Source of the DNA: Acidihalobacter aeolianus
Lineage (GTDB): Bacteria > Pseudomonadota > Gammaproteobacteria > DSM-5130 > Acidihalobacteraceae
Direction of reading: 5' to 3'
Length of the DNA stretch: 64,000 bases
Assembly (NCBI RefSeq): GCF_001753165.1
Contig: NZ_CP017448.1
Location: 762,462-826,461, forward strand
The notes beneath the pieces are model-generated. The model was not told the DNA's origin, did not search any database, and worked only from the letters and a program-made list of their open reading frames with translations. This document shows, in pieces, positions 1,827 through 13,175 of the stretch (the stretch's first letter is position 1; the number at the start of each line of letters is the position of its first letter). Made by a program: the position numbers and the translations under genes.

Positions 1827-2927
1827 ATGACCCGGAACTCGATTCACGACTTGGCGCGTGAACTGAACGAGAGCGACGAGTTCGTCAGAACCAAGATCCG
1901 CTTCATCACCATCGCCACTGTCATTGGCGTGGTTGTGGCGTTGCTCATGAGTTATCTCGAACTGCAGCACGGTGCCTGGTTCCGCGCCCTGCCGGCCGCC
2001 TTGTTCCCGTTGTTTGCGCCTCCGTTGGTGTTTCATATGTATCACGGAAGGCGCGCCTACCAGCAGGGGCTGGTCGGTTTTGCGGTGCTGGTGGCGATAC
2101 AGCAGATCCTGGGGGCGGCGGTCACGCTGAACGACGTCGAGGCATTGATCTGGTTTCCGATCTTTCCGCTGACCTACGTCCTGCTGCTCGGTCACGAACG
2201 GGCGCTGCGCTGGAATGCCGTGATTATGGTGTTCCTGTGCCTGGGCTATGCGCTGTTTCCCCAAATCAATCACGGACTCAATCCACTGCCGTTGCCGCTG
2301 TTCGGCTCGGCCCTGCTGGCCTACGCCATGTCGATGCTGCTGTCGTGGCAGTCGCATCGGGAGTTGAGTTACTACCATCGGCGGCTGTACGCGCAGGCGA
2401 GCTATGACGCGTTGACCGGGGCGATGATGCGCGAGCCTGGCCTGGAGGTGTTGGGACGGCAGATGGCGCAGGTGGATCGGCGTCCTGAATCCGGGTTGTG
2501 CGTGGCGCTGCTGGACCTGGATGACTTCAAGCGGATCAACGACGAGGACGGACACCTGGCGGGTGACCGGGTGTTGGTCGAGGTGGCTGCTGCACTGCGT
2601 GGGCAGATTCGTCAGGGCGACTATCTGGTGCGCTTGGGCGGGGAGGAGTTCCTGCTGCTGTTTCCGGGCATGGGCACGGATGGCGCGCACGGCATGTCGG
2701 AGCAGCTGCGCGCGCGTATCCCAGAGGTGACGACGGGCCTGAGCGCACGTCCGGTGACGGCGAGTATCGGGCTGACACGCTATCGCCCGGGCGAGAGCGT
2801 GGGGCAGCTGCTGGGGCGTGCGGACGAGTTGATGTATGCGGCCAAAACCACCGGCAAGAACCGGATCTGCTGTGAGGATGCGGGCGGTGCAGAAGTCGGG
2901 TTCGCGCTGCCAGGGCAGACCGGATGA
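1827..2927 (+). CDS. Membrane diguanylate cyclase (GGDEF), first of a tandem pair
   Basis: Makes cyclic di-GMP from two GTP. The N-terminal part (residues about 25-180) is a run of hydrophobic segments, about six membrane spans with short loops and no recognised ligand-binding domain. The C-terminal part is a GGDEF domain with an intact GGEEF signature at residues 271-275 and an RxxD inhibitory site (RQGD) five residues before it, so product inhibition is expected. The ATG at 1827 is chosen because GAGG lies 6 nt upstream; an in-frame ATG at 1773 lacks such a site. The stop overlaps the next start (ATGA), so the two cyclases are translationally coupled. Its catalytic domain is identical at DNA level to most of that of the next gene. 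Confidence 0.9.
   Translation: MTRNSIHDLARELNESDEFVRTKIRFITIATVIGVVVALLMSYLELQHGAWFRALPAALFPLFAPPLVFHMYHGRRAYQQGLVGFAVLVAIQQILGAAVTLNDVEALIWFPIFPLTYVLLLGHERALRWNAVIMVFLCLGYALFPQINHGLNPLPLPLFGSALLAYAMSMLLSWQSHRELSYYHRRLYAQASYDALTGAMMREPGLEVLGRQMAQVDRRPESGLCVALLDLDDFKRINDEDGHLAGDRVLVEVAAALRGQIRQGDYLVRLGGEEFLLLFPGMGTDGAHGMSEQLRARIPEVTTGLSARPVTASIGLTRYRPGESVGQLLGRADELMYAAKTTGKNRICCEDAGGAEVGFALPGQTG
2392..2818 (+). repeat. 427-bp direct repeat, copy 1 (GGDEF domain)
   Basis: By eye every base matches the copy at 3495-3921 (offset 1,103 bp), including third codon positions. Just outside, the two genes differ in sequence at both ends: 2819 onwards has scattered silent changes, and before 2392 the codons are unrelated. 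Confidence 0.95.
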
Positions 2928-4006
2928 CATTGCCGGAGAAGGGTGGCAGGCACAGCCCAGCTGAGGCCGCTGAGGATAGTGAATATTCCGCTGCCAGAAT
3001 GCGTTTTCTGTATGTCGGCGTGACCCTGGGTACGATCGCCTCGCTGATCATGTTCTACGTGGATTTGCGCCATGGTCAACACGACTGGGCGCTGAGCAGT
3101 CTTCTGTTCCCTGCCTGCGCGCCGCCCTTGCTCTATTGGATGCGCCGTGGCTCGGTTGCTGCAGGAAAGGCGCAGAGCGGGATGGCGCTGCTGATCGCCA
3201 TAGCCTTGGTGGGCGGTGCTCTGGCGTCGCTGAATACGGAAATCCTGTTGGTCTGGATCCCCGTGCTCCCGTTGGCCTTCGTGTTCCTGCTCGGGCACGC
3301 ACGCGCCATGGGTTGGGTCGTCTGGACCCTGATGGGCGTGATCGTGGCCTATACGTTGTTCCCCTTGTTCCATCGAGGCGAGGCGCCGGTTTCCCTGCTG
3401 TTGTTCGTCATCTCGCTGCTGGCCGCCGGCGTTTCCATCCTGCTGTCGTGGCAGCACCATCGCGAACTCGGGGTGTATCAACGCTATCTGCGCACGCAGG
3501 CGAGCTATGACGCGTTGACCGGGGCGATGATGCGCGAGCCTGGCCTGGAGGTGTTGGGACGGCAGATGGCGCAGGTGGATCGGCGTCCTGAATCCGGGTT
3601 GTGCGTGGCGCTGCTGGACCTGGATGACTTCAAGCGGATCAACGACGAGGACGGACACCTGGCGGGTGACCGGGTGTTGGTCGAGGTGGCTGCTGCACTG
3701 CGTGGGCAGATTCGTCAGGGCGACTATCTGGTGCGCTTGGGCGGGGAGGAGTTCCTGCTGCTGTTTCCGGGCATGGGCACGGATGGCGCGCACGGCATGT
3801 CGGAGCAGCTGCGCGCGCGTATCCCAGAGGTGACGACGGGCCTGAGCGCACGTCCGGTGACGGCGAGTATCGGGCTGACACGCTATCGCCCGGGCGAGAG
3901 CGTGGGGCAGCTGCTGGGGCGGGCAGACGAGCTGATGTACGCGGCCAAAACCACCGGCAAGAACCGGATCTGCCATGATGGTGACGTCCCGCCTGACGCC
4001 GATTAG
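2924..4006 (+). CDS. Membrane diguanylate cyclase (GGDEF), second of a tandem pair
   Basis: A 360-residue paralogue of the preceding gene. It has about six hydrophobic N-terminal segments (residues about 27-180) that resemble the partner only distantly, followed by a GGDEF domain with GGEEF and the upstream RQGD inhibitory site. The start is the ATG at 2924, inside the ATGA overlap with the previous stop codon. Sensor halves differ while enzymatic halves are the same, so the two probably answer different membrane signals with the same output. After its stop comes a promoter-like TATAAT and the separated 5' end of the LOV-GGDEF-EAL gene. Confidence 0.9.
   Translation: MTLPEKGGRHSPAEAAEDSEYSAARMRFLYVGVTLGTIASLIMFYVDLRHGQHDWALSSLLFPACAPPLLYWMRRGSVAAGKAQSGMALLIAIALVGGALASLNTEILLVWIPVLPLAFVFLLGHARAMGWVVWTLMGVIVAYTLFPLFHRGEAPVSLLLFVISLLAAGVSILLSWQHHRELGVYQRYLRTQASYDALTGAMMREPGLEVLGRQMAQVDRRPESGLCVALLDLDDFKRINDEDGHLAGDRVLVEVAAALRGQIRQGDYLVRLGGEEFLLLFPGMGTDGAHGMSEQLRARIPEVTTGLSARPVTASIGLTRYRPGESVGQLLGRADELMYAAKTTGKNRICHDGDVPPDAD
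3495..3921 (+). repeat. 427-bp direct repeat, copy 2 (GGDEF domain)
   Basis: Partner of 2392-2818. The repeat ends at 3921; at 3922-3943 a few silent differences appear before identity resumes for the last codons of the domain. Confidence 0.95.
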
Positions 4007-4139: not shown

Positions 4140-4164
4140 ATGAGCGACGGTTCGAGTGATCTAG
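4140..4164 (+). pseudogene. Detached first eight codons of the LOV-GGDEF-EAL gene
   Basis: ATG at 4140 encodes MSDGSSDL and then meets the CTAG where the IS5-family element begins. Joining 4140-4164 to 13176 onwards, keeping one CTAG copy, reads MSDGSSDLGGLIRSLEP without a break and in the frame of the large downstream gene. This is therefore the original start of that gene. Confidence 0.85.
4161..4164. repeat. Target site duplication CTAG, left copy (IS5-family)
   Basis: CTAG directly abuts the left inverted repeat; the other copy is at 13172-13175. It fits the YTAR target preference known for IS5-type elements. Confidence 0.85.
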
Positions 4165-4198
4165 GGCCTGTTCACATTAATTTTGATATAATTGCTGC

Positions 4199-4268
4199 AT
4201 GGAAATTACCTTGCAGCAGTACAAAATCATCGAGCCCTTGTTGCCGCTTCCGCGAGGCAATATAAAAA
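4199..4268 (+). pseudogene. IS5-family transposase, 5' piece
   Basis: The ATG at 4199, 34 bp inside the left end, opens MEITLQQY and continues through PLLPLPRGNIK, the usual N-terminus of IS5 transposases. The frame is then cut by the ISL3-type transposon at 4269. The continuation is at 12470. Confidence 0.85.
4261..4268. repeat. 8-bp target site duplication TATAAAAA, left copy
   Basis: Identical to 12462-12469 on the far side of the transposon. Eight base pairs is the duplication length typical of the ISL3 family. Confidence 0.92.
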
Positions 4269-4283
4269 GGCTATTTGCATTCT
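4269..4283. repeat. Left terminal inverted repeat of the ISL3-type transposon
   Basis: GGCTATTTGCATTCT, the exact reverse complement of 12447-12461. It starts with GG as ISL3 ends usually do. Confidence 0.93.
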
Positions 4284-4415
4284 AGGGTTGGAATCCAACC
4301 GTTCTGACCCTGGATTATTGGTCAGGTCAAATGCAGCCTCTGGTTGGATTTCTCTGTTTTCACTGCCTCACCAGAATCTAACATTGGTTGGATTCTCTGA
4401 CGCAACTCTCTCGCG
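4284..4415. other. Left subterminal region with three GGTTGGA(A/T)T copies
   Basis: Noncoding end between the inverted repeat and the transposase stop. GGTTGGAAT at 4286-4294 forms a palindrome with the following bases (GGTTGGAATCCAACC). GGTTGGATT recurs at 4342-4350 and 4386-4394, each followed by a TCTCTG-like motif. These may be transposase binding sites; that is inference from position and repetition. Confidence 0.5.
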
Positions 4416-5684
4416 CTAATCCAGCTCACCACTCTCTGCCTGTTTCAACAACGTCGGAATGTGCGGCCCATATTCCACCTTGCCGTGACCTGCTCGAATA
4501 CCACTGCCGACCTTGCGGGCTTCTTTGGAGTACAACGTCTTTGCCCGAATGATGGGGTAGCTATAACCCCGACCTAACCGGTTGGACATCTTGATCAGAC
4601 CGTTGAGCCCTTCGGTGTAACCATTAGTGATCGGGAATGGTGCATCCCAGTAGGCAAAGATGTCGTCGTAATGGTTGTGAACCGTTTTGGCCAGCTTCTT
4701 GAATGCCACTAGCCCTTGGTCTGGCAAGCTGTTCTCCCAGGCTTCAAAGGCATTCTGAGCATTCTGCTTGTCGAGTTCATCGTAGATGCAGAAGAAGGCT
4801 TCCTTGAAATCATAGGCTACGGCAAGCTCAGGGATCGCCTGCTTCACGACTTCCAGCGCCTTTTGTTCTGCGGGCGTCAGGTTACCGGGCCGCTTCAGGG
4901 TGAGCCAGCGAATGGATTTTTTGACGTAAATCCGGTCTTCTTTGCTTAACTGAGCCTGATAGTTCTTGCGCTCAACTTCCAGCGCTTCGGAGGCCATTTT
5001 AACGACATGGAACTTGTCGATCACCAGTTTGGCGTTGGGCAGGTATTGAGCAAAAGAACGCTTGAAGGGCCGCCACATATCAGTACAGACCCATTCCACC
5101 TTGTCAGCGTCCGGCAGCGCCTTGAAGAATGGCTTCAGATGCTCCTGGGTCCGGTGCTCTAACATATCGAAGACGTTGTTGGTTGCCAGGTTGGTGATTA
5201 CACAGCGATACCCACCGGCGAGGTTCACTTCGTCGATACCCATAATAACGGGGGTTTCGTAGCGAACGGTTTGCGATAGTTCGTTTATCAGGTCGTGGGC
5301 AATATTCTTGACAGTATTCACCGCCACGCCAGTTTGCTCGGCTAAAGCATGGAAGGTGGTTCCCAGGCACTGTTGCCGAATGACATCGACCAGCCGCTTG
5401 GTGGCTCTCCGTTTGTCATCCAGAAAACTCAATTCGGGCATCGACATTTTGCCGCACGACTCACAGCGAAAGCGCGGGCGCTGAACTTCAAGACGGACAG
5501 GCTGCATGTACAACGGCGTGTCCATGAACTTGTTTTTGCGCGTGCCGTGTTTGTGCATAGGGATGTTGCAGTCCCCGCATAGCGGTACCTCGACCGTTTC
5601 CGGCTTGGCAACGATCACAAGGCCCTTGCTCTCATGGCGCATATCCACCGGTTTTATGCCGGGCAGATTCAGCAGGTCAAGCAT
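4416..5684 (-). CDS. ISL3-family transposase
   Basis: A 422-residue DDE transposase. The N-terminal zinc-finger part has the pairs CGDC near residue 36 and CESC near residue 76, followed by a helix-turn-helix around 110-150. The catalytic part shows the first Asp in GIDEVNLAGG, the second in CTDMWRPF and the Glu in GYTEGLNGLIK, followed by the usual C-terminal NRLGRGYSY stretch. The start is the ATG at 5684, whose next codons (LDLLNLPG) match family N-termini. Upstream codons in the same frame only shadow the end of hsdR. It begins 4 nt after the hsdR stop and has no visible promoter of its own, so it should be co-transcribed with the restriction operon. Confidence 0.93.
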   Translation of the reverse strand: MLDLLNLPGIKPVDMRHESKGLVIVAKPETVEVPLCGDCNIPMHKHGTRKNKFMDTPLYMQPVRLEVQRPRFRCESCGKMSMPELSFLDDKRRATKRLVDVIRQQCLGTTFHALAEQTGVAVNTVKNIAHDLINELSQTVRYETPVIMGIDEVNLAGGYRCVITNLATNNVFDMLEHRTQEHLKPFFKALPDADKVEWVCTDMWRPFKRSFAQYLPNAKLVIDKFHVVKMASEALEVERKNYQAQLSKEDRIYVKKSIRWLTLKRPGNLTPAEQKALEVVKQAIPELAVAYDFKEAFFCIYDELDKQNAQNAFEAWENSLPDQGLVAFKKLAKTVHNHYDDIFAYWDAPFPITNGYTEGLNGLIKMSNRLGRGYSYPIIRAKTLYSKEARKVGSGIRAGHGKVEYGPHIPTLLKQAESGELD

Positions 5685-5688
5685 CGGC

Positions 5689-8600
5689 TTAATCCATATC
5701 CAGGTCGATGTCTTGGCCTTCGCGCAGCAGGTCATACACCACGTCAACCAATGCGGCCATGCCCTGACGATCAGACTTGAGCACCTGGGTGGCTAGCTTC
5801 TGGTGGCTGGACAAAGCACGTACGACCGCTTGCTGAACAGCGCCGGGCAAGTTGCCTTTCATGGCCTGTTCGCGGGTGTTACTTTCCACCTGAGCCATCA
5901 CCACATCGCTTTCACCGGCGATTGAAAAGATCTGATTCACGAAGGCCACCTGATCCTGAATCGGCGTTGCCTCACCAAACAGGCTGTTGAGCCGCTCAAT
6001 AATCTCTTTGACGAATTTCGGCTTGTCGCCTGCCACACCACCACCGCCTGCACCTACCGGTTGCAGTACCGGGGTTTCGCCTTCGTCCTCCGCGTTATCT
6101 GAACGAGCATTGATGTCGAAACCGGTGAGCACCAGGCCGGTCAAGTCCACGGTTTCAGGTGCTTCGTGCAATAGACGCTTTTGCAATAGCTTGGCGAAGG
6201 CGGCGAAGTTCTCCAGCTCCGGGTCGCCAAAATCAATCAGTTGGGCGATATAGGAGTAGGTACGACAAAAACGCCCCAAATCCGACTTGAAGCCAATCAG
6301 TGCCTTGATTTGCTCGGCGTACTCATCCTGATGGTGGTCAGCAGACTTCATGCCCGCCTCATCACCCTTGGCGCGGGCCTTCTCAAAAGCCGCCTCCCAG
6401 GTCGCCATGCCATCGCGCAGCATCTTCATCTTGTCGTTATACAAGGCCGTCGCTCCAGCAGTGGCGGCATACAGCGCCTTGTGCTGTGGCGATTTGGTAT
6501 GGGTGATATCGCGGATGGTCTTGAAGCGTGCTTCCTTGAACGCAGCCAAGTCCTTCTCGTCATACAGGCCGTGCTCGTCCAAGCGCTCCTTGATCTCGTA
6601 GACCACATTGAGGTCTTGCACTTCGTCGATGTGAGCGCCCTTGTCATAGGTGGTAAAGGCCTGACGCACGTTCTCCGGGTCGTTCACAAAGTCGATGATA
6701 AAGACCTCATCCTTACCGGGCGCCGTCCGGTTGAGACGGGAGAAGGTCTGCACAATCTCCACATGGTTGGCGATTTTCTTGTCTACATACATGGCGACCA
6801 GTTTGGGCTGGTCAAAGCCGGTCTGGAACTTGTCGGCCACCAACATCACCCGGTATTCAGGGCGGTCAAAGGCAAAGCGCAAATCCTGCCCTTGGACATC
6901 CGGGTTCATGCTCTGCTCAGTGAACTCTTCGTTCTCATCGACGATAAACACATCGTCCTTATACTCACCGTCATCCTGGTGCATCACCTGCTTACCGGTC
7001 ATCTTGCCGGAGAAGGCCACCAGTGAATGAATAAAGCCGTACTCGCTGTGCTGCTCGATATAGCGGTCAAACGCCTTCTTGTAGCGAATGGCGGCGGCAC
7101 GGGAGCTGGTGACCACCATGGCCTTGGCCTTGCCATCCAGCCGGTGGGCGACGTTCTTGGTGAAGTGCTCAACGATAAACTGCACCTTTTGGGTCACATT
7201 GGTGGGGTGCAGGGACATCCACTGTGCCAAGGCGCGTTTGGCGGCCTTCCCGCTCACCCGCTTGCTGTCTTCAATCTGCTTGGAAAGGTTGAAGGCCGTT
7301 TTGTAGGGCACATAGCCTTTCAGCACATCGAGAATGAACTTCTCCTCGATGGCCTGGCGCATGGTGTACAGGTGGAAGGCTTGCGGCGGGTTATCGTCCG
7401 AGGCCGGTTGGCTTGGATCGGTCGGGCGACCGAACAGCATCAACGTGGAGTGCTTGGGCGTACCGGTAAAGGCGAAGTAGCTGATATTCTTTGGTCGGGC
7501 GCGGGACTTTTGCAGTTGTTCCAGCAACTCATCCACCGTCATGGTGGACATCTTGCCTTGCCCGCTCATTCCCAGTGCGGCTTGCAGCTTGGCGGCGGTA
7601 GCGCCGGTCTGCGAGTTATGCGCCTCATCAATGATCACCGCAAAGTTTTTCCCTTTCAGGGCTTTGTCAGTGATGATGGCTTCCATTGCATAGGGAAAGG
7701 TCTGGATCGTTACCACCACAATCGGCGTACCAGACAACAGGGCTTCCGAGAGCTGCTTGCTCTTGGACTTGGATGACTTTTGCCGGTCAATGGCGGCGAT
7801 CACGCCAAACTGGTGGTCAATCTGCTTCACCGCATCCTGGAGCTGGCTGTCCAGCACATTGCGGTCGGTGACGATGATCACGCTGTTAAATACCGCATCG
7901 CCGTTATCTTCGCGCAGTTTCACCAAGTCATGGGCCGTCCAAGATATTGTGCTGGTCTTGCCGGAACCGGCGCTGTGGTCACACAGGTAGGTCATGCCTG
8001 CACCGTTTACGCGGGCATCGGCCAGCATCTGGTTCACTGCCGTCCATTGGTGGAAACGTGGGAAAATCAGGGTTTCTTTCTTTGACCAGTTACCCTGAAT
8101 ATCCACCACGTCCTTTTTCTCGATGTAGACAAAACTATGAAAGATACGTAGCCAGGCATCCGGTTGGCAGACTTCCTCCCAAAAGTAGGCTACTGGGTAC
8201 TCCTGGGTGCCATCGGGCTTGACCTCACCGGGCGGGTTGCCCGCATGTACCGTACCGCTTTCGTCCTTGCGACCCTTGTTGAACGGCAGGAAGAACGTAT
8301 TTTCCCCTTCCAGCTTGGTTGCCATCATGATTTCGGAATCGGACATGGCAAAGTGCACCACCGCCCCGCGCTTGAATGTCAGTAGCGGTTCTCTGCGCTT
8401 GGTCTTGGGATCGTAGGGCAAACGGTCATTTCGGTATTGATCCATCGCCGCTTCAGCCGACTGGGTGAAGTCGGTTTTAAGCTCCACCGTCGCCACGGGT
8501 AGGCCGTTGATAAACAGCACCAGATCAATGGCAAATTCACGGGCTGGGTGATACTTCAGCTCCGGCACCACGCGCAGGATATTGGCCTGGTAGCGCTCAA

Positions 8601-8946
8601 TGACTGCTGCATTGCGCTTGTCTTCCGGTGCGGCCTCGGTCATCTCGATCAGGCCACAACCGGCAATGGAAAAGCCCTGGCGCAACACCTGCATGGTGCC
8701 TTGTTTCTCCAGCGCTTTATCCAGCCGCGCCATCAGCACCTCAAGGGTCTTAGCCCCGTTAAGCCGTTCCAGCTTGTCCCACTTTTCCTGCTGGCCGCTG
8801 CTCTTGATCCAGCTTTCCAGGTCTTCGGGGTATACCGCCCGCTCGGTGTCGTAGTGCTGAGTGTCGCCTAGTTTCCAGCCCTGCTCTACCAGCCGGTCGA
8901 TGATGTATTGCTGGAAGTGTTTTTCCTGATGGGCGGATGCCTGCAT
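5689..8946 (-). CDS. hsdR: Type I restriction enzyme subunit R (HsdR)
   Basis: A 1,085-residue motor and nuclease subunit. The N-terminal PD-(D/E)xK nuclease shows Asp141 in FAIDLVL and Glu155/Lys157 in VELKTDF. The superfamily 2 translocase follows, with Walker A (AGSGKT, 326-331), DEAH at 440-443, TGTP at 494-497 and downstream motifs including FDRPEYRVMLVADKFQTGFD. The C-terminal region (about 760-1085) is the assembly part. The length fits the family. The ATG at 8946 overlaps the hsdS stop by one base. The enzyme would cleave DNA lacking the methylation set by HsdM-HsdS. No frameshift or missing key motif is seen, so it looks functional. Confidence 0.95.
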   Translation of the reverse strand: MQASAHQEKHFQQYIIDRLVEQGWKLGDTQHYDTERAVYPEDLESWIKSSGQQEKWDKLERLNGAKTLEVLMARLDKALEKQGTMQVLRQGFSIAGCGLIEMTEAAPEDKRNAAVIERYQANILRVVPELKYHPAREFAIDLVLFINGLPVATVELKTDFTQSAEAAMDQYRNDRLPYDPKTKRREPLLTFKRGAVVHFAMSDSEIMMATKLEGENTFFLPFNKGRKDESGTVHAGNPPGEVKPDGTQEYPVAYFWEEVCQPDAWLRIFHSFVYIEKKDVVDIQGNWSKKETLIFPRFHQWTAVNQMLADARVNGAGMTYLCDHSAGSGKTSTISWTAHDLVKLREDNGDAVFNSVIIVTDRNVLDSQLQDAVKQIDHQFGVIAAIDRQKSSKSKSKQLSEALLSGTPIVVVTIQTFPYAMEAIITDKALKGKNFAVIIDEAHNSQTGATAAKLQAALGMSGQGKMSTMTVDELLEQLQKSRARPKNISYFAFTGTPKHSTLMLFGRPTDPSQPASDDNPPQAFHLYTMRQAIEEKFILDVLKGYVPYKTAFNLSKQIEDSKRVSGKAAKRALAQWMSLHPTNVTQKVQFIVEHFTKNVAHRLDGKAKAMVVTSSRAAAIRYKKAFDRYIEQHSEYGFIHSLVAFSGKMTGKQVMHQDDGEYKDDVFIVDENEEFTEQSMNPDVQGQDLRFAFDRPEYRVMLVADKFQTGFDQPKLVAMYVDKKIANHVEIVQTFSRLNRTAPGKDEVFIIDFVNDPENVRQAFTTYDKGAHIDEVQDLNVVYEIKERLDEHGLYDEKDLAAFKEARFKTIRDITHTKSPQHKALYAATAGATALYNDKMKMLRDGMATWEAAFEKARAKGDEAGMKSADHHQDEYAEQIKALIGFKSDLGRFCRTYSYIAQLIDFGDPELENFAAFAKLLQKRLLHEAPETVDLTGLVLTGFDINARSDNAEDEGETPVLQPVGAGGGGVAGDKPKFVKEIIERLNSLFGEATPIQDQVAFVNQIFSIAGESDVVMAQVESNTREQAMKGNLPGAVQQAVVRALSSHQKLATQVLKSDRQGMAALVDVVYDLLREGQDIDLDMD

Positions 8947-10304
8947 TATTGTTCTCCTCGCAAATCAATCTGGCCGGTAACAGCGGCGGTGATAAAGGCC
9001 GAGCGGCGCTCTTTGAGTAGGGTAATACTTTGCTCTGCCTTGCCAATCAACGCATCAATGCGGGCGGTTTCGCGGTCGAGGGCGGCGGCGATGGTGGCTT
9101 GTTCGTCAAGAGAAGGAGCAGCGACACCCTCATCAAGATATTGCTCAGAATCCAGATTTTGAATCCCTGTAGATTGCTTAATGGAACGTAGATTTATCTT
9201 GAGCGCATACATAGATGCCATTAGATAATTTAGCCATGCGGACTCGGCCTTTTTCGACGGCTTTATAACTGCTACAAAGTTGGAGCAAACGGCAGGCTCT
9301 TCTCCCAGATAGCGCACATTTGCACCCACTAATGTTTGTGCGCCGCCTCCTGATTTCTCAAGGAGAATGTCTCCTTTGGAAACTAACCGGCTATCTTGGT
9401 GTTCCTTGGTAATCTGCCGATACGTTGAGGGGTTACAAATGACAACGTTGTTATCCCTATCGAAATCTGCAACCCGAATACATAATGTATCCGAGCCATC
9501 TTCCAGTGGGTCATCACCCCAAACGCCATTCTGGCATTGGGATATTAAGTGCTTCAGCCTTTTTACCTCCCAATGCTCCGGCACCTGCCCAATCCACTCA
9601 ACGCCGGAATCCTTCATCTTCACGTTGGGGTCTAGCCCCTTGGTGACCGCATGGGTAATCAGCGCCTGACGCTTTTCCTTCAGCAGATCGATAAAGCGGG
9701 TTTTCTTCTGGATTAGCGAATCAATACGGGCGGTTTCGCGGTCGAGGGCGGCTGCGATGGTGACTTGTTCTTCTGGTGGAGGGAGCGCTACTGGGGCATT
9801 ACCAATAGTATTTTGATTCAGGCCATATCGGGTTATTCCTGGCGACTCAACAAAGAAGTAAGCTTTTGTATGATCCGACTGGATCGAACGATGGATATAG
9901 CTCCCATGGTTATCATTTAAGGCACGAATCATAGTGAGATGATAGCCACAAACCACTCCAGGCATATCATGTGGAACAAAGGCAGGAACCCCTATGTCGG
10001 AAGGGTCTTCCGAATCCTTCGTGATAATGACATCACCTTTTTTCAGAGTGAACTGCTCAATCTCGTGGGCGCTGGCAGTAGCCTGCATGAAAGGCATATC
10101 ATTACTGATGAATTCGTTGTAATAGACGTCCGTGTAGTTACAAAGCTTAACTGTCTGCTGGTCTTCATAGCTCTTCTTGTCTACTCCACTATTAGAGTAA
10201 CGCCCGATATGACGTAGCCTTTTCACCTCCCAATGCTCCGGCACCTGCCCAATCCACTCAACGCCGGAATCCTTGTACGCGGGATACGCTTTGTACTGGC
10301 TCAT
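8946..10304 (-). CDS. hsdS: Type I restriction-modification specificity subunit S (HsdS)
   Basis: A 452-residue subunit with the classical two-half architecture. Each half opens with the same motif (KDSGVEWIGQVPEHW at residues 11-25 and 231-245, exactly 220 residues apart), then a variable target recognition domain, then a conserved helical spacer (AALDRETARID with KR-rich helix). The two recognition domains differ, so a bipartite asymmetric target is expected; it cannot be read from sequence. The ATG overlaps the hsdM stop (ATGA). The repeated DNA at the start of each half could support domain exchange by recombination. Confidence 0.95.
   Translation of the reverse strand: MSQYKAYPAYKDSGVEWIGQVPEHWEVKRLRHIGRYSNSGVDKKSYEDQQTVKLCNYTDVYYNEFISNDMPFMQATASAHEIEQFTLKKGDVIITKDSEDPSDIGVPAFVPHDMPGVVCGYHLTMIRALNDNHGSYIHRSIQSDHTKAYFFVESPGITRYGLNQNTIGNAPVALPPPEEQVTIAAALDRETARIDSLIQKKTRFIDLLKEKRQALITHAVTKGLDPNVKMKDSGVEWIGQVPEHWEVKRLKHLISQCQNGVWGDDPLEDGSDTLCIRVADFDRDNNVVICNPSTYRQITKEHQDSRLVSKGDILLEKSGGGAQTLVGANVRYLGEEPAVCSNFVAVIKPSKKAESAWLNYLMASMYALKINLRSIKQSTGIQNLDSEQYLDEGVAAPSLDEQATIAAALDRETARIDALIGKAEQSITLLKERRSAFITAAVTGQIDLRGEQ
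9556..9614. repeat. 59-bp direct repeat in hsdS, copy for the second recognition domain
   Basis: Matches 10216-10274 with one mismatch (position 9564 versus 10224), spaced by exactly 660 bp. It encodes the conserved opening of each half of HsdS. Confidence 0.93.
10216..10274. repeat. 59-bp direct repeat in hsdS, copy for the first recognition domain
   Basis: Partner of 9556-9614. Recombination between the two would delete or swap 660 bp, one recognition domain, without changing the reading frame. Confidence 0.93.
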
Positions 10305-12328
10305 TCGCTGGCCACCTCTGCCAGTAGCGCGGCAATCTCGGCTTCCACCTGCTTCAGGTCTTCATCAATATCATGCAGCTTGCGCGGCGGCTGGTACTGA
10401 TAGAAGAAGCGGTTGAAGTTGATCTCATAGCCGACGCGGCCCAGCTTGCCATCCTTCGCATCGGTAAAGCTCTCGTCCAGATAGGCATCCGGGACATGGG
10501 GCAGCACTTCGCGGGCGAAGTAGTCTTCAATGTCCTCCAGGTAAGGAACATTTTCGTAATCGGTCAGATCAGTATCCGGCACCAGGTTGCCGTTGGCATC
10601 TGTGACGGGCTCGGCTTCCGGGTCTTTGTGACCAAAGGCGTTGATCAGCGCGGTGATAAAGGTCTTGTTGGCCTTGACCTTGAGCTTCTTGGCTTCGTCG
10701 GACTTGATCGCGCCCTTGGCAAAGGTTTCTGCCCAGCCATAGGTCTGCGTTTGCCCGATCAGCGGCTTGAGGGCGTCGCGCCAGAATGCCTGATGCGCGT
10801 CAGAGAGCTTTTCCCAAGTGGGGTCAGCTTCCAGGCGCTCCATGCCCGCCTTATCCAGTTCTAGGATCATGCGCAGCGGGCGCAGTACCTTGATACGGCG
10901 GTAGCCAAAGGTGCGGTAGTCGAGCATCCGGGAAAGCGCATCGGTTTCCCCAGCGGCGTAGATGTCCAAAATCTGGCGGCGCTGATCATCGCTGACAATA
11001 CGGCGCTTGTTGCCCTCGTTGCGGATTGAAGTCCACAGATCGGTGGCGTTGATCAACTGCACCTTGCCTTTGCGCTCCTGCGGCTTCTTATTGGACAGAA
11101 TCCACAGGTAGGTGGCGATATTGGTGCGGAAGAACAGATCCGTTGGCAGGGCCACAATGGCTTCAATCAGGTCGTTTTCCAGCAACCAGCGGCGGATTTC
11201 CGATTCGCCAGACGCGGCACCACCGTTGAATAGTGGCGAACCGGACAGCACGATAGCGGCGCGGCCACCGCCGTTGATCGGCAGTTCCAGTTTGCTGGCA
11301 AGGTGCATCAAAAACAGCATGGAGCCATCGCTGATTTTCGGCAGGCCCGGCCCAAAGCGGCCCAATTCGCCTTTTTTGTGTTCCGCTTCGACGGCGTTTT
11401 TGTCCTTCTCCCATTTCTTCCCAAACGGGGGATTGGACAGACAGTAGTGGAAACGCTCACCGGCAAACTGGTCGTTGGACAGCGTACTGCCCTGACGAAT
11501 GTTCTTCGACAGATCGCGGCCAGGGTCGGATTCCAGACGGCGGATCAGCATACCGGCCACACAAACCGCATGGGTTTCTGGTTCCAGCTCCTGCCCGTGC
11601 GGCACCAGAACCGGCGGTACCTTGTCGCGGCCACCGTAATCGCCCACATGGTTCATGGCATCAGTGAGGAACCCACCCGTGCCGCAGGTCGGGTCATACA
11701 GGGTACGAATCAAACCGGGGTTGGCCTCAAACAGGGCGTCATCCGGGTCAAGCAAAAGTGCGGTTGCCAGGTGAACGATGTCACGCGGCGTCATGAAGTC
11801 CTCGGCCCCTTCGTTGACCTCAGCACCAAAGCGGCGAATCAGGTGTTCGTAGATATTGCTCATCACCCGATCCGGCACCACCTCAGGGTGCAGGTCGATC
11901 TTGGCGAAGTTCTGGCAAATCTTGTACAGCAAGCCAGCCTTCTCCAGCCGGATCACGGTATTGCCGAACTCGAACTCCTCGAAGATAGCGCGGGCGTTAT
12001 CCGAAAACAGGGCGATGTAGTCTTCCAGATTGCGGCGCGTCTTGGTGCTACCGAGGGTGCCAAGGGAGTATTCTGAGGTGTTGTAGAAGGGGTATTCAGC
12101 GGTTGAGCGCAGAATGGTGTCCAGCTCAACATCGGCATCCTTGAAAGCGGCGTATGCCTCTCTCACCGCCTCGCGGGTCGGCTCCAACGCACACTCCAGG
12201 CGGCGCAGCAAGGTAAACGGCAAGATGATCTTGCCAAAGTCCGTATGTTTGAAGTCCCCCCACAGGTCTTCCGCGTTCTTCCAAATAAAGTCAGCCTGTG
12301 AAGCTGCCGATCCCGTAAATTCGTTCAT
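10301..12328 (-). CDS. hsdM: Type I restriction-modification DNA methyltransferase subunit M (HsdM)
   Basis: A 675-residue N6-adenine methyltransferase. Residues about 1-150 form the HsdM N-terminal helical domain. S-adenosylmethionine-binding motif I is DPTCGTGGF (about 212-220), and the catalytic motif IV is NPPF (about 299-302). A C-terminal extension of about 250 residues makes it longer than the EcoKI type. The ATG at 12328 is preferred because GGAGG sits 5 nt before it; the in-frame TTG at 12340 would overlap that site. It is the first gene of an hsdM-hsdS-hsdR-transposase unit with 4-bp, 1-bp and 4-nt junctions. Confidence 0.95.
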   Translation of the reverse strand: MNEFTGSAASQADFIWKNAEDLWGDFKHTDFGKIILPFTLLRRLECALEPTREAVREAYAAFKDADVELDTILRSTAEYPFYNTSEYSLGTLGSTKTRRNLEDYIALFSDNARAIFEEFEFGNTVIRLEKAGLLYKICQNFAKIDLHPEVVPDRVMSNIYEHLIRRFGAEVNEGAEDFMTPRDIVHLATALLLDPDDALFEANPGLIRTLYDPTCGTGGFLTDAMNHVGDYGGRDKVPPVLVPHGQELEPETHAVCVAGMLIRRLESDPGRDLSKNIRQGSTLSNDQFAGERFHYCLSNPPFGKKWEKDKNAVEAEHKKGELGRFGPGLPKISDGSMLFLMHLASKLELPINGGGRAAIVLSGSPLFNGGAASGESEIRRWLLENDLIEAIVALPTDLFFRTNIATYLWILSNKKPQERKGKVQLINATDLWTSIRNEGNKRRIVSDDQRRQILDIYAAGETDALSRMLDYRTFGYRRIKVLRPLRMILELDKAGMERLEADPTWEKLSDAHQAFWRDALKPLIGQTQTYGWAETFAKGAIKSDEAKKLKVKANKTFITALINAFGHKDPEAEPVTDANGNLVPDTDLTDYENVPYLEDIEDYFAREVLPHVPDAYLDESFTDAKDGKLGRVGYEINFNRFFYQYQPPRKLHDIDEDLKQVEAEIAALLAEVASE

Positions 12329-12446
12329 CCTGGCCTCCAACCACCTTTTGCACGAAACGCTATCATGATCAGCTGATGATTATCAACCATATTTTGCACA
12401 AAAGGGACTGGATTCCATTTCCGGGCTAAATCTGCGATCCTACCTC
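12329..12446 (-). promoter_or_regulatory. Leader and promoter region of the hsd-transposase operon
   Basis: All expression signals of the operon must lie in these roughly 120 bp next to the right end. GGAGG is at 12333-12337. A GATAAT hexamer (minus strand, around 12377-12384) is the best -10 candidate, with no clear -35. A palindrome ATCAGCTGAT at 12368-12377, within a longer imperfect one, is a candidate operator. No controller protein gene is present. Confidence 0.4.
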
Positions 12447-12461
12447 AGAATGCAAATAGCC
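12447..12461. repeat. Right terminal inverted repeat of the ISL3-type transposon
   Basis: AGAATGCAAATAGCC, exact reverse complement of the left end at 4269-4283. Confidence 0.93.
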
Positions 12462-12469
12462 TATAAAAA
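12462..12469. repeat. 8-bp target site duplication TATAAAAA, right copy
   Basis: Second copy of the duplication at 4261-4268. The perfect match argues for recent insertion. Confidence 0.92.
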
Positions 12470-13175
12470 TATCCAACCTACAGGTGCTTAACGCGATCCT
12501 GTACGTGGCCGAGCATGGCTGCAAGTGGCGTGGCTTACCGGTCCGTTTCGGTCGCTGGCACAGCATCTATATGCGCGCCAATCGCTGGGCCAAACAGGGC
12601 GTGCTGGATCGAGTCTTCCTGGCGCTGCAGGAAAACGACGTGATTAATATCCAAGTCGATCATGTCTCGCTCGATTCCACAGCCGTCAAGGTTCATCCAG
12701 ACGGAACCGGTGCTTTAAAAAAAACGGTCCTCAATCTATCGGCAAATCCCGCGCCGGATGGACAACCAAGATTCATCTGGTCGCCGCCGGAGCCAATCGA
12801 GCCGTAGCCTTTCGACTTTCCCCGGGACAGGCCGGAGATGCACCAGAAGGCAGAAAACTGCTCAAAAGCCTGGAGCACTGCGGCTGGGAAGGCACCTCGG
12901 TCATCATGGACCGCGCCTATGAGGGTGACGAGACGCGCCAGCTCGCGCTGGATCTGGGTATGACCCCAGTGGTGCCGCCCAAGCGCAATCGGCTCACGCC
13001 TTGGGAATACGATCTTGAACTTTACAAGAAGCGCAATGAAGTCGAGCGACTATTCCGAAGACTCAAAGGATTTCGGCGCATCTTCTCACGCTTCGATAAG
13101 CTCGATGTCGTCTTCACCTTCTTCATCCACTTCGCTCTCATCGTCGATACACTTATTAGTGTGAACAGGCCCTAG
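12470..13175 (+). pseudogene. IS5-family transposase, 3' piece with -1 frameshift site
   Basis: Continues the 5' piece at 4199 in frame (ISNLQVLNAILYVAEHGC). The first frame ends at 12807. The second frame, entered at the A run near 12717-12725 (TTTAAAAAAAAC) by a -1 shift, reads on through GKSRAGWTTKIHLVAAG to the stop at 13173-13175. DDE residues are visible as the Asp in VSLDSTAVK, the Asp in VIMDRAYEG and the Glu in RNEVERLFRR. Two frames joined by slippage on a run of A is known from IS5-family subgroups. The final TAG lies in the flanking CTAG, so the stop codon is borrowed from the target. It is non-functional because it is split. Confidence 0.88.
13172..13175. repeat. Target site duplication CTAG, right copy (IS5-family)
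   Basis: Abuts the right inverted repeat, pairs with 4161-4164 and marks the rejoining point of the disrupted gene. Confidence 0.85.

What the first reader, a model, noticed from the sequence alone, without database searches (positions are those of the whole stretch)
4269..12461. A complete type I restriction-modification system moved as cargo of an ISL3-type transposon
Perfect 15-bp inverted repeats, an exact 8-bp duplication (TATAAAAA) and one ISL3-family transposase enclose hsdM, hsdS and hsdR with almost no other DNA. The 8-bp duplication and GG-starting ends are what the ISL3 family makes. Excising it with one duplication copy restores an IS5 transposase frame exactly, so the 8.2-kb unit inserted as one piece. 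ISL3 elements with passenger genes are known, but I do not know of one described as a self-contained type I defence transposon. It would be a direct route by which such systems spread.
Basis: partly seen in the sequence, partly recalled or inferred. Interest (0 to 1): 0.88.

Follow-up and report, generated by a model that had tools for sequence, protein, structure and literature searches.

The report
ISKpn25-like transposon carrying restriction genes
A complete 8.2-kb transposon has carried a full set of DNA-restriction (phage-defence) genes into this chromosome; it is real, but it is a chromosomal cousin of a mobile element already known from hospital Klebsiella plasmids (ISKpn25).

Summary
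An 8,193-bp unit (4269-12461) with 15-bp perfect ends, an 8-bp duplication (TATAAAAA), an ISL3 transposase and hsdM-hsdS-hsdR interrupts an 808-bp IS5-family element; three other copies of that IS5 in the genome are uninterrupted and match the rejoined flanks. The claim of novelty fails: full-length homologues (94% aligned, 92% identical) are ISKpn25, 8,154 bp, listed in ISfinder with the hsd ORFs inside, described in 2016 as an IS with hsdM as a passenger gene, and shown to jump as one piece into mgrB. I confirmed whole-unit mobility: four E. coli chromosomes hold copies identical to plasmid-borne elements, each in its own 8-bp duplication. New here: (a) hsd operon and transposase form one old, co-diversifying lineage in at least four phyla; (b) hsdS is a mosaic whose two recognition domains match different copies; (c) a TGCA-N6-GGTTGRA motif is conserved at both ends and twice in the hsdM leader, suggesting that the transposase also controls the operon; (d) deeper members carry further defence-type genes. 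Verdict: new member of a known kind.

The parts
4269..12461 (-). ISKpn25-like ISL3 transposon, 8,193 bp (genes read on - strand: hsdM-hsdS-hsdR-tnp)
   Evidence: ends, TSD, homologues
4261..4268 (.). target-site duplication copy TATAAAAA
12462..12469 (.). target-site duplication copy TATAAAAA
4269..4292 (+). terminal inverted repeat, transposase side (15 bp perfect, 21/24)
12438..12461 (-). terminal inverted repeat, hsdM side
4416..5684 (-). ISL3-family DDE transposase, 422 aa, starts 4 nt after the hsdR stop
   Evidence: Pfam PF01610, PF13542, PF14690; same start annotated in ISKpn25; junction sequence
5689..8946 (-). hsdR, 1085 aa, type I restriction subunit
   Evidence: Pfam HSDR_N, SWI2_SNF2; PADLOC REase_I
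8946..10304 (-). hsdS, 452 aa, two target-recognition domains
   Evidence: Pfam Methylase_S, two stretches; PADLOC
10301..12340 (-). hsdM, 679 aa from TTG (675 aa from the ATG at 12328, the start used in ISKpn25 annotation)
   Evidence: Pfam N6_Mtase, HsdM_N; PADLOC MTase_I 1e-251
12438..12454 (-). motif TGCA-N6-GGTWGGA, left-end site 1 (within the TIR)
12382..12398 (-). motif TGCA-N6-GGTTGA, left-end site 2
   Evidence: present in all 12 end-mapped elements
12336..12352 (-). motif TGCA-N6-GGTTGGA, left-end site 3, overlapping the start region of hsdM
4276..4292 (+). same motif in the transposase-side terminus
4164..13172 (+). 808-bp IS5-family element (DUF4096/DDE_Tnp_1) interrupted by the transposon

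Best explanation
The unit is a complete, probably functional member of the ISKpn25 lineage: an ISL3-family DDE transposon whose cargo is a full type I RM operon with the transposase as the last gene (hsdM-hsdS-hsdR-tnp). The transposase cuts or copies at the GG...CC ends and inserts the whole 8.2-kb unit into AT-rich targets with an 8-bp duplication; here it landed in a resident IS5 copy. The RM genes travel at every jump and are expected to protect the new host and replicon by methylation and to restrict incoming DNA. Between copies, recombination swaps hsdS recognition domains, so one backbone shows many specificities. Shown: structure, target duplication, empty sites, whole-unit transposition in relatives, hsdS mosaicism, co-diversification. 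Inferred: transposase and RM activity of this copy, and transposase binding to the repeated motif in the hsdM leader.
For: Ends, duplication and empty IS5 copies. Homologues with identical gene order and ends on plasmids. Seventeen sites with perfect, mutually different 8-bp duplications around the entire hsdMSR-tnp unit: this one; eight named or MAG loci (Pseudomonas marincola, Marinobacter pelagius, Pectobacterium fontis, Pantoea dispersa, Undibacterium, Acidocella, Vreelandella jeotgali, a Burkholderiales MAG); pKPN4, pECTOK-001_1, pKAZ2, pKFu015_1; and four E. coli chromosomes. The E. coli KFu015 and TOK-001 chromosomal copies have 0 differences from the plasmid copy in the same strain; the EC28 and Nord8 copies have 0 differences from the pKPN4 copy, and both strains also carry a plasmid copy. 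The talA target is intact in 5,373 of 5,426 E. coli genomes at the 80%-coverage level. Every transposase of at least 57% identity with enough upstream DNA has hsdR (35 rows); none of the 33 rows at 40% or less does, and a 100/100 branch separates the two sets apart from one very long-branched row. Transposase-HsdR identity correlation r = 0.967 over 25 elements; 0 of 5,000 permutations as high.
Against: No activity was tested. There is one copy only in this genome, so recent mobility within this host is not shown. No relative of the genus carries the element, so its source is unknown. In 13 of the loci with full gene sets at 57-88% transposase identity my scan found no perfect ends with duplication: these may be decayed, longer, or outside the search range.
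Confidence: 0.97

Rival explanations
1. A plain ISL3 element inserted first and a type I RM operon was later captured or inserted between its ends at this locus.
For: ISL3 elements without cargo are common; the transposases at 40% identity or less have no hsd genes nearby.
Against: The same gene order and ends, each with its own 8-bp duplication, occur at 17 independent sites. Transposase and Hsd proteins co-diversify. Capture happened, if so, once and long ago, before the lineage split.
Confidence: 0.02
2. A resident chromosomal or island-borne RM locus with the ISL3 insertion next to it by chance.
For: Type I loci often sit near mobile genes (background knowledge).
Against: The hsd genes lie inside the ends; intact IS5 copies match the rejoined flanks; a sister species has the neighbouring GGDEF genes with no IS5 or hsd DNA between them and the next gene.
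Confidence: 0.01
3. A decayed, non-functional fossil of an ISKpn25-like element.
For: Single copy in the genome; no expression or methylation data.
Against: All four frames are full length with complete Pfam domains; ends and duplication are perfect; transposase 99% identical to that of an independently inserted copy in P. marincola.
Confidence: 0.1

Closest known systems
ISKpn25 (ISL3 family; K. pneumoniae MGH 78578 plasmid pKPN4, NC_009650; 8,154 bp)
   Same: Same ends, 8-bp duplication, gene order hsdM-hsdS-hsdR-tnp, 4-nt hsdR-tnp spacing; transposase 94%, HsdR 97%, HsdM 95% identical
   Different: HsdS 66% overall: first recognition domain about 95% at DNA level, second about 40%; chromosomal, in a distant gammaproteobacterial host, inserted in an IS5 element
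Element on pKAZ2 (KR827391, 'ISKpn25-like')
   Same: 92% identical over 95% of the element; second HsdS recognition domain 98% identical at DNA level
   Different: First recognition domain unrelated (17-34% in the worst 200-bp bins)
Other ISL3 elements with passengers, e.g. ISPst2 (arsR-type regulator + permease)
   Same: ISL3 transposase, 8-bp duplication, cargo inside the ends (PMC6305408)
   Different: Cargo is not a defence system and is much smaller (2,985 bp)

Membership tests
ISL3 family | DDE transposase of ISL3 type with HTH and zinc ribbon | tested here: met
   PF01610, PF13542, PF14690 above cut-off
ISL3 family | Terminal inverted repeats starting GG, 8-bp target duplication | tested here: met
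   GGCTATTTGCATTCT x2, TATAAAAA x2
ISKpn25 lineage | Whole-element homology, same ends and same passenger operon | tested here: met
   92% identity over 94% of the element, full length end to end
ISKpn25 (same named element) | ISfinder's isoform rule (more than 95% DNA or 98% protein identity; from memory) | tested here: not met
   92% DNA, transposase 94% aa: a relative that would deserve its own name
Type I restriction-modification system | HsdR with nuclease/SNF2 domains, HsdM N6-MTase, HsdS with two recognition domains, in one operon | tested here: met
Type I restriction-modification system | Methylation and restriction at a bipartite site | not testable with these tools
   needs long-read methylation data or plating assay
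Active transposon | Whole unit moves to new sites | tested here: met
   Met for relatives: identical plasmid and chromosomal copies in E. coli with new duplications; published for ISKpn25 in mgrB. Not tested for this copy.

The most novel reading that the evidence does not exclude
The transposase is also the regulator of the restriction operon: it binds the TGCA-N6-GGTTGRA motif not only at the transposon ends but at two conserved sites in the hsdM leader, one overlapping the hsdM start. Being the last gene of the same operon, it would couple transposition to restriction in one feedback loop, for instance to limit hsd and transposase expression once established.
Probability: 0.35. Interest if true: 0.6.

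Novelty: new member of a known kind. Interest (0 to 1): 0.42.

Why it matters
It shows a type I RM system as the standing cargo of a small autonomous transposon, an old lineage found in at least four bacterial phyla (Pseudomonadota, Bacillota, Campylobacterota, Fidelibacterota), with specificity changed by hsdS domain exchange between copies. It ties a clinical element (ISKpn25, which causes colistin resistance by entering mgrB) to an environmental reservoir. That ISKpn25 carries a restriction system has been mentioned in the literature found, but hardly followed up there.

Tried and rejected
Later capture of the hsd genes into a bare ISL3 element: rejected because no hsd-free member of at least 57% transposase identity was found in contiguous DNA. 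Chance adjacency: rejected by the intact IS5 copies. A phage vehicle: no match in phage records. Plasmid records with only the 3' part of the transposase (43% coverage, Klebsiella) looked at first like cargo-free copies; mostly no gene is annotated there and the match starts at the same query base, so I read them as truncated remnants (not followed further). Apparent absence of hsdM in the E. coli KFu015 and TOK-001 chromosomal copies was an artefact of how the search joins pieces; the elements are complete. One E. coli plasmid copy (L112) has ends but no duplication and a broken hsdS. A literature search for type I RM transposons under other words gave nothing relevant.

Full report
OBSERVATION. 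The unit runs from 4269 to 12461 (8,193 bp). Its ends are GGCTATTTGCATTCT, perfect for 15 bp and 21/24 over 24 bp, flanked by TATAAAAA on both sides. The end sequence has exactly two perfect occurrences in the 3.5-Mb genome. Genes on the - strand in order: hsdM, hsdS, hsdR, ISL3 transposase, with complete Pfam domains. The transposase starts 4 nt after the hsdR stop, as annotated in ISKpn25. G+C is 54% in the unit and 63% in the rest of the window.

EMPTY SITE. The unit interrupts an 808-bp IS5-family element (4164-13172). Three other copies in the same genome are uninterrupted; the rejoined flanks match them at 100%, 100% and 99.9% across the junction, with one TATAAAAA. In a sister species the two neighbouring GGDEF genes and the downstream gene are present without IS5 or hsd DNA between them, and no other searched genome of the genus carries the unit.

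IDENTITY. The whole unit aligns end to end with plasmid elements: 94% of it at 92-93% identity, the gap being in hsdS. These are annotated ISKpn25 family (K. pneumoniae MGH 78578 pKPN4, 8,154 bp). ISKpn25 is listed from ISfinder with 8,154 bp and ORFs of 684, 438, 1085 and 422 aa (PMC8796155; that table's function labels for the ORFs appear permuted). [quoted passage not shown] Insertion of the full 8,154 bp into mgrB from pKpQIL-like plasmids, 100% identical, is reported (PMC8796155 citing Giordano 2018), and copy-number increase under colistin (PMC12217459). So the kind of element is already known; this copy is a relative below the identity usually required for the same name (that rule is from memory).

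MOBILITY OF THE WHOLE UNIT. Seventeen sites with the full unit have perfect and mutually different 8-bp duplications. In E. coli KFu015 and TOK-001 the chromosomal copy has 0 differences from the plasmid copy of the same strain. The chromosomal copies of Nord8 and EC28 have 0 differences from the pKPN4 element, and both strains also carry a plasmid copy. The Nord8 copy splits talA, whose rejoined sequence is found with at least 80% coverage in 5,373 of 5,426 E. coli genomes.

AN OLD LINEAGE. A scan of 84,980 species genomes with the transposase gave 77 loci. Every member of at least 57% identity with enough upstream DNA carries hsdR (35 rows including the window and three plasmids), and none of the 33 rows at 40% or less does; a branch with 100/100 support separates them, leaving aside one very long-branched archaeal row. 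Hosts span several classes of Pseudomonadota, and Bacillota, Campylobacterota and Fidelibacterota; some of these are MAG contigs, where misbinning is possible. Pairwise identities of transposase and HsdR correlate at 0.967, transposase and HsdM at 0.962, over 25 elements (0 of 5,000 permutations as high). The system is thus inherited as a unit. It is uncommon: 2 of 369 sampled genomes of the class, this one included.

SPECIFICITY EXCHANGE. Along the alignment of eight elements, identity to the window is roughly 79-100% everywhere except in the two hsdS recognition domains, where it falls to 17-68% in most pairs. The window's first domain is about 95% identical to those of M. pelagius and pKPN4, its second 98% to that of pKAZ2, while the other domain of each is unrelated. 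Conserved stretches in the two halves of hsdS are near-identical direct repeats (59 nt at 98%, 57 nt at 91%), which gives recombination its footing. hsdS domain exchange is well known for type I systems (background knowledge); here it occurs between copies of a transposon.

EXTRA CARGO. Deeper members carry genes between hsdM and hsdS or between hsdS and hsdR: RhuM family, DUF1016/YhcG nuclease, Abi_2, a RhuM-Fic fusion, DUF4357. The window element has none.

REPEATED MOTIF. TGCA-N6-GGTTGRA (at most one mismatch) lies at element positions 8, about 64 and about 110 at the left end and at the right terminus in all 12 end-mapped elements, although the DNA between the sites is poorly conserved. 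The remaining 55.7 kb of the window has no exact and one near match. Site 3 overlaps the hsdM start region. The likely reading is transposase-binding sites, some of which sit on the operon's leader, hence possible autoregulation. This is inference.

HOW IT WORKS (committed reading). Transposase made at the end of the operon pairs the ends and inserts the unit into AT-rich DNA; conjugative plasmids move it between species; after arrival HsdM/S methylates the new host's DNA and HsdR restricts foreign DNA. Shown: anatomy, insertion as one piece, mobility of relatives. Not shown: activity of this copy, and whether transposition is cut-and-paste or copy-out.

VERDICT. Observation confirmed; interpretation right in mechanism and wrong on being undescribed. 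Interest is moderate because of the lineage-wide coupling, the specificity exchange and the testable regulatory motif.

Noticed in passing
1773-2927 and 2924-4006: Two tandem, slightly overlapping GGDEF (diguanylate cyclase) genes share a 479-nt 3' part at 99.2% identity while their N-terminal sensor parts differ: recent domain duplication or gene conversion.
   Followed up: partly
4164-13172 and L085, L086, L087, L088: An 808-bp IS5-family element has at least three further intact, essentially identical copies plus one 88-89% identical copy in this genome, so it is or was recently active.
   Followed up: partly
L017, L018, L020, L021, L023, L025, L027, L028, L031, L032 (between hsdM, hsdS and hsdR): Variable accessory genes (RhuM, DUF1016/YhcG nuclease, Abi_2, RhuM-Fic fusion, DUF4357, unknowns) inserted at fixed places in the hsd operon of related transposons: a possible place to look for unrecognised defence genes.
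   Followed up: partly
12336-12398: Two internal copies of the transposon-end motif TGCA-N6-GGTTGRA in the hsdM leader, spacing conserved across elements as divergent as 64% in the transposase.
   Followed up: partly
Klebsiella plasmids, e.g. NZ_CP024572.1:16029-16570: About 1,000 Klebsiella plasmid records carry only a 542-bp 3' piece of the transposase, in the rows seen starting at the same query base: a widespread truncated ISKpn25 remnant.
   Followed up: no
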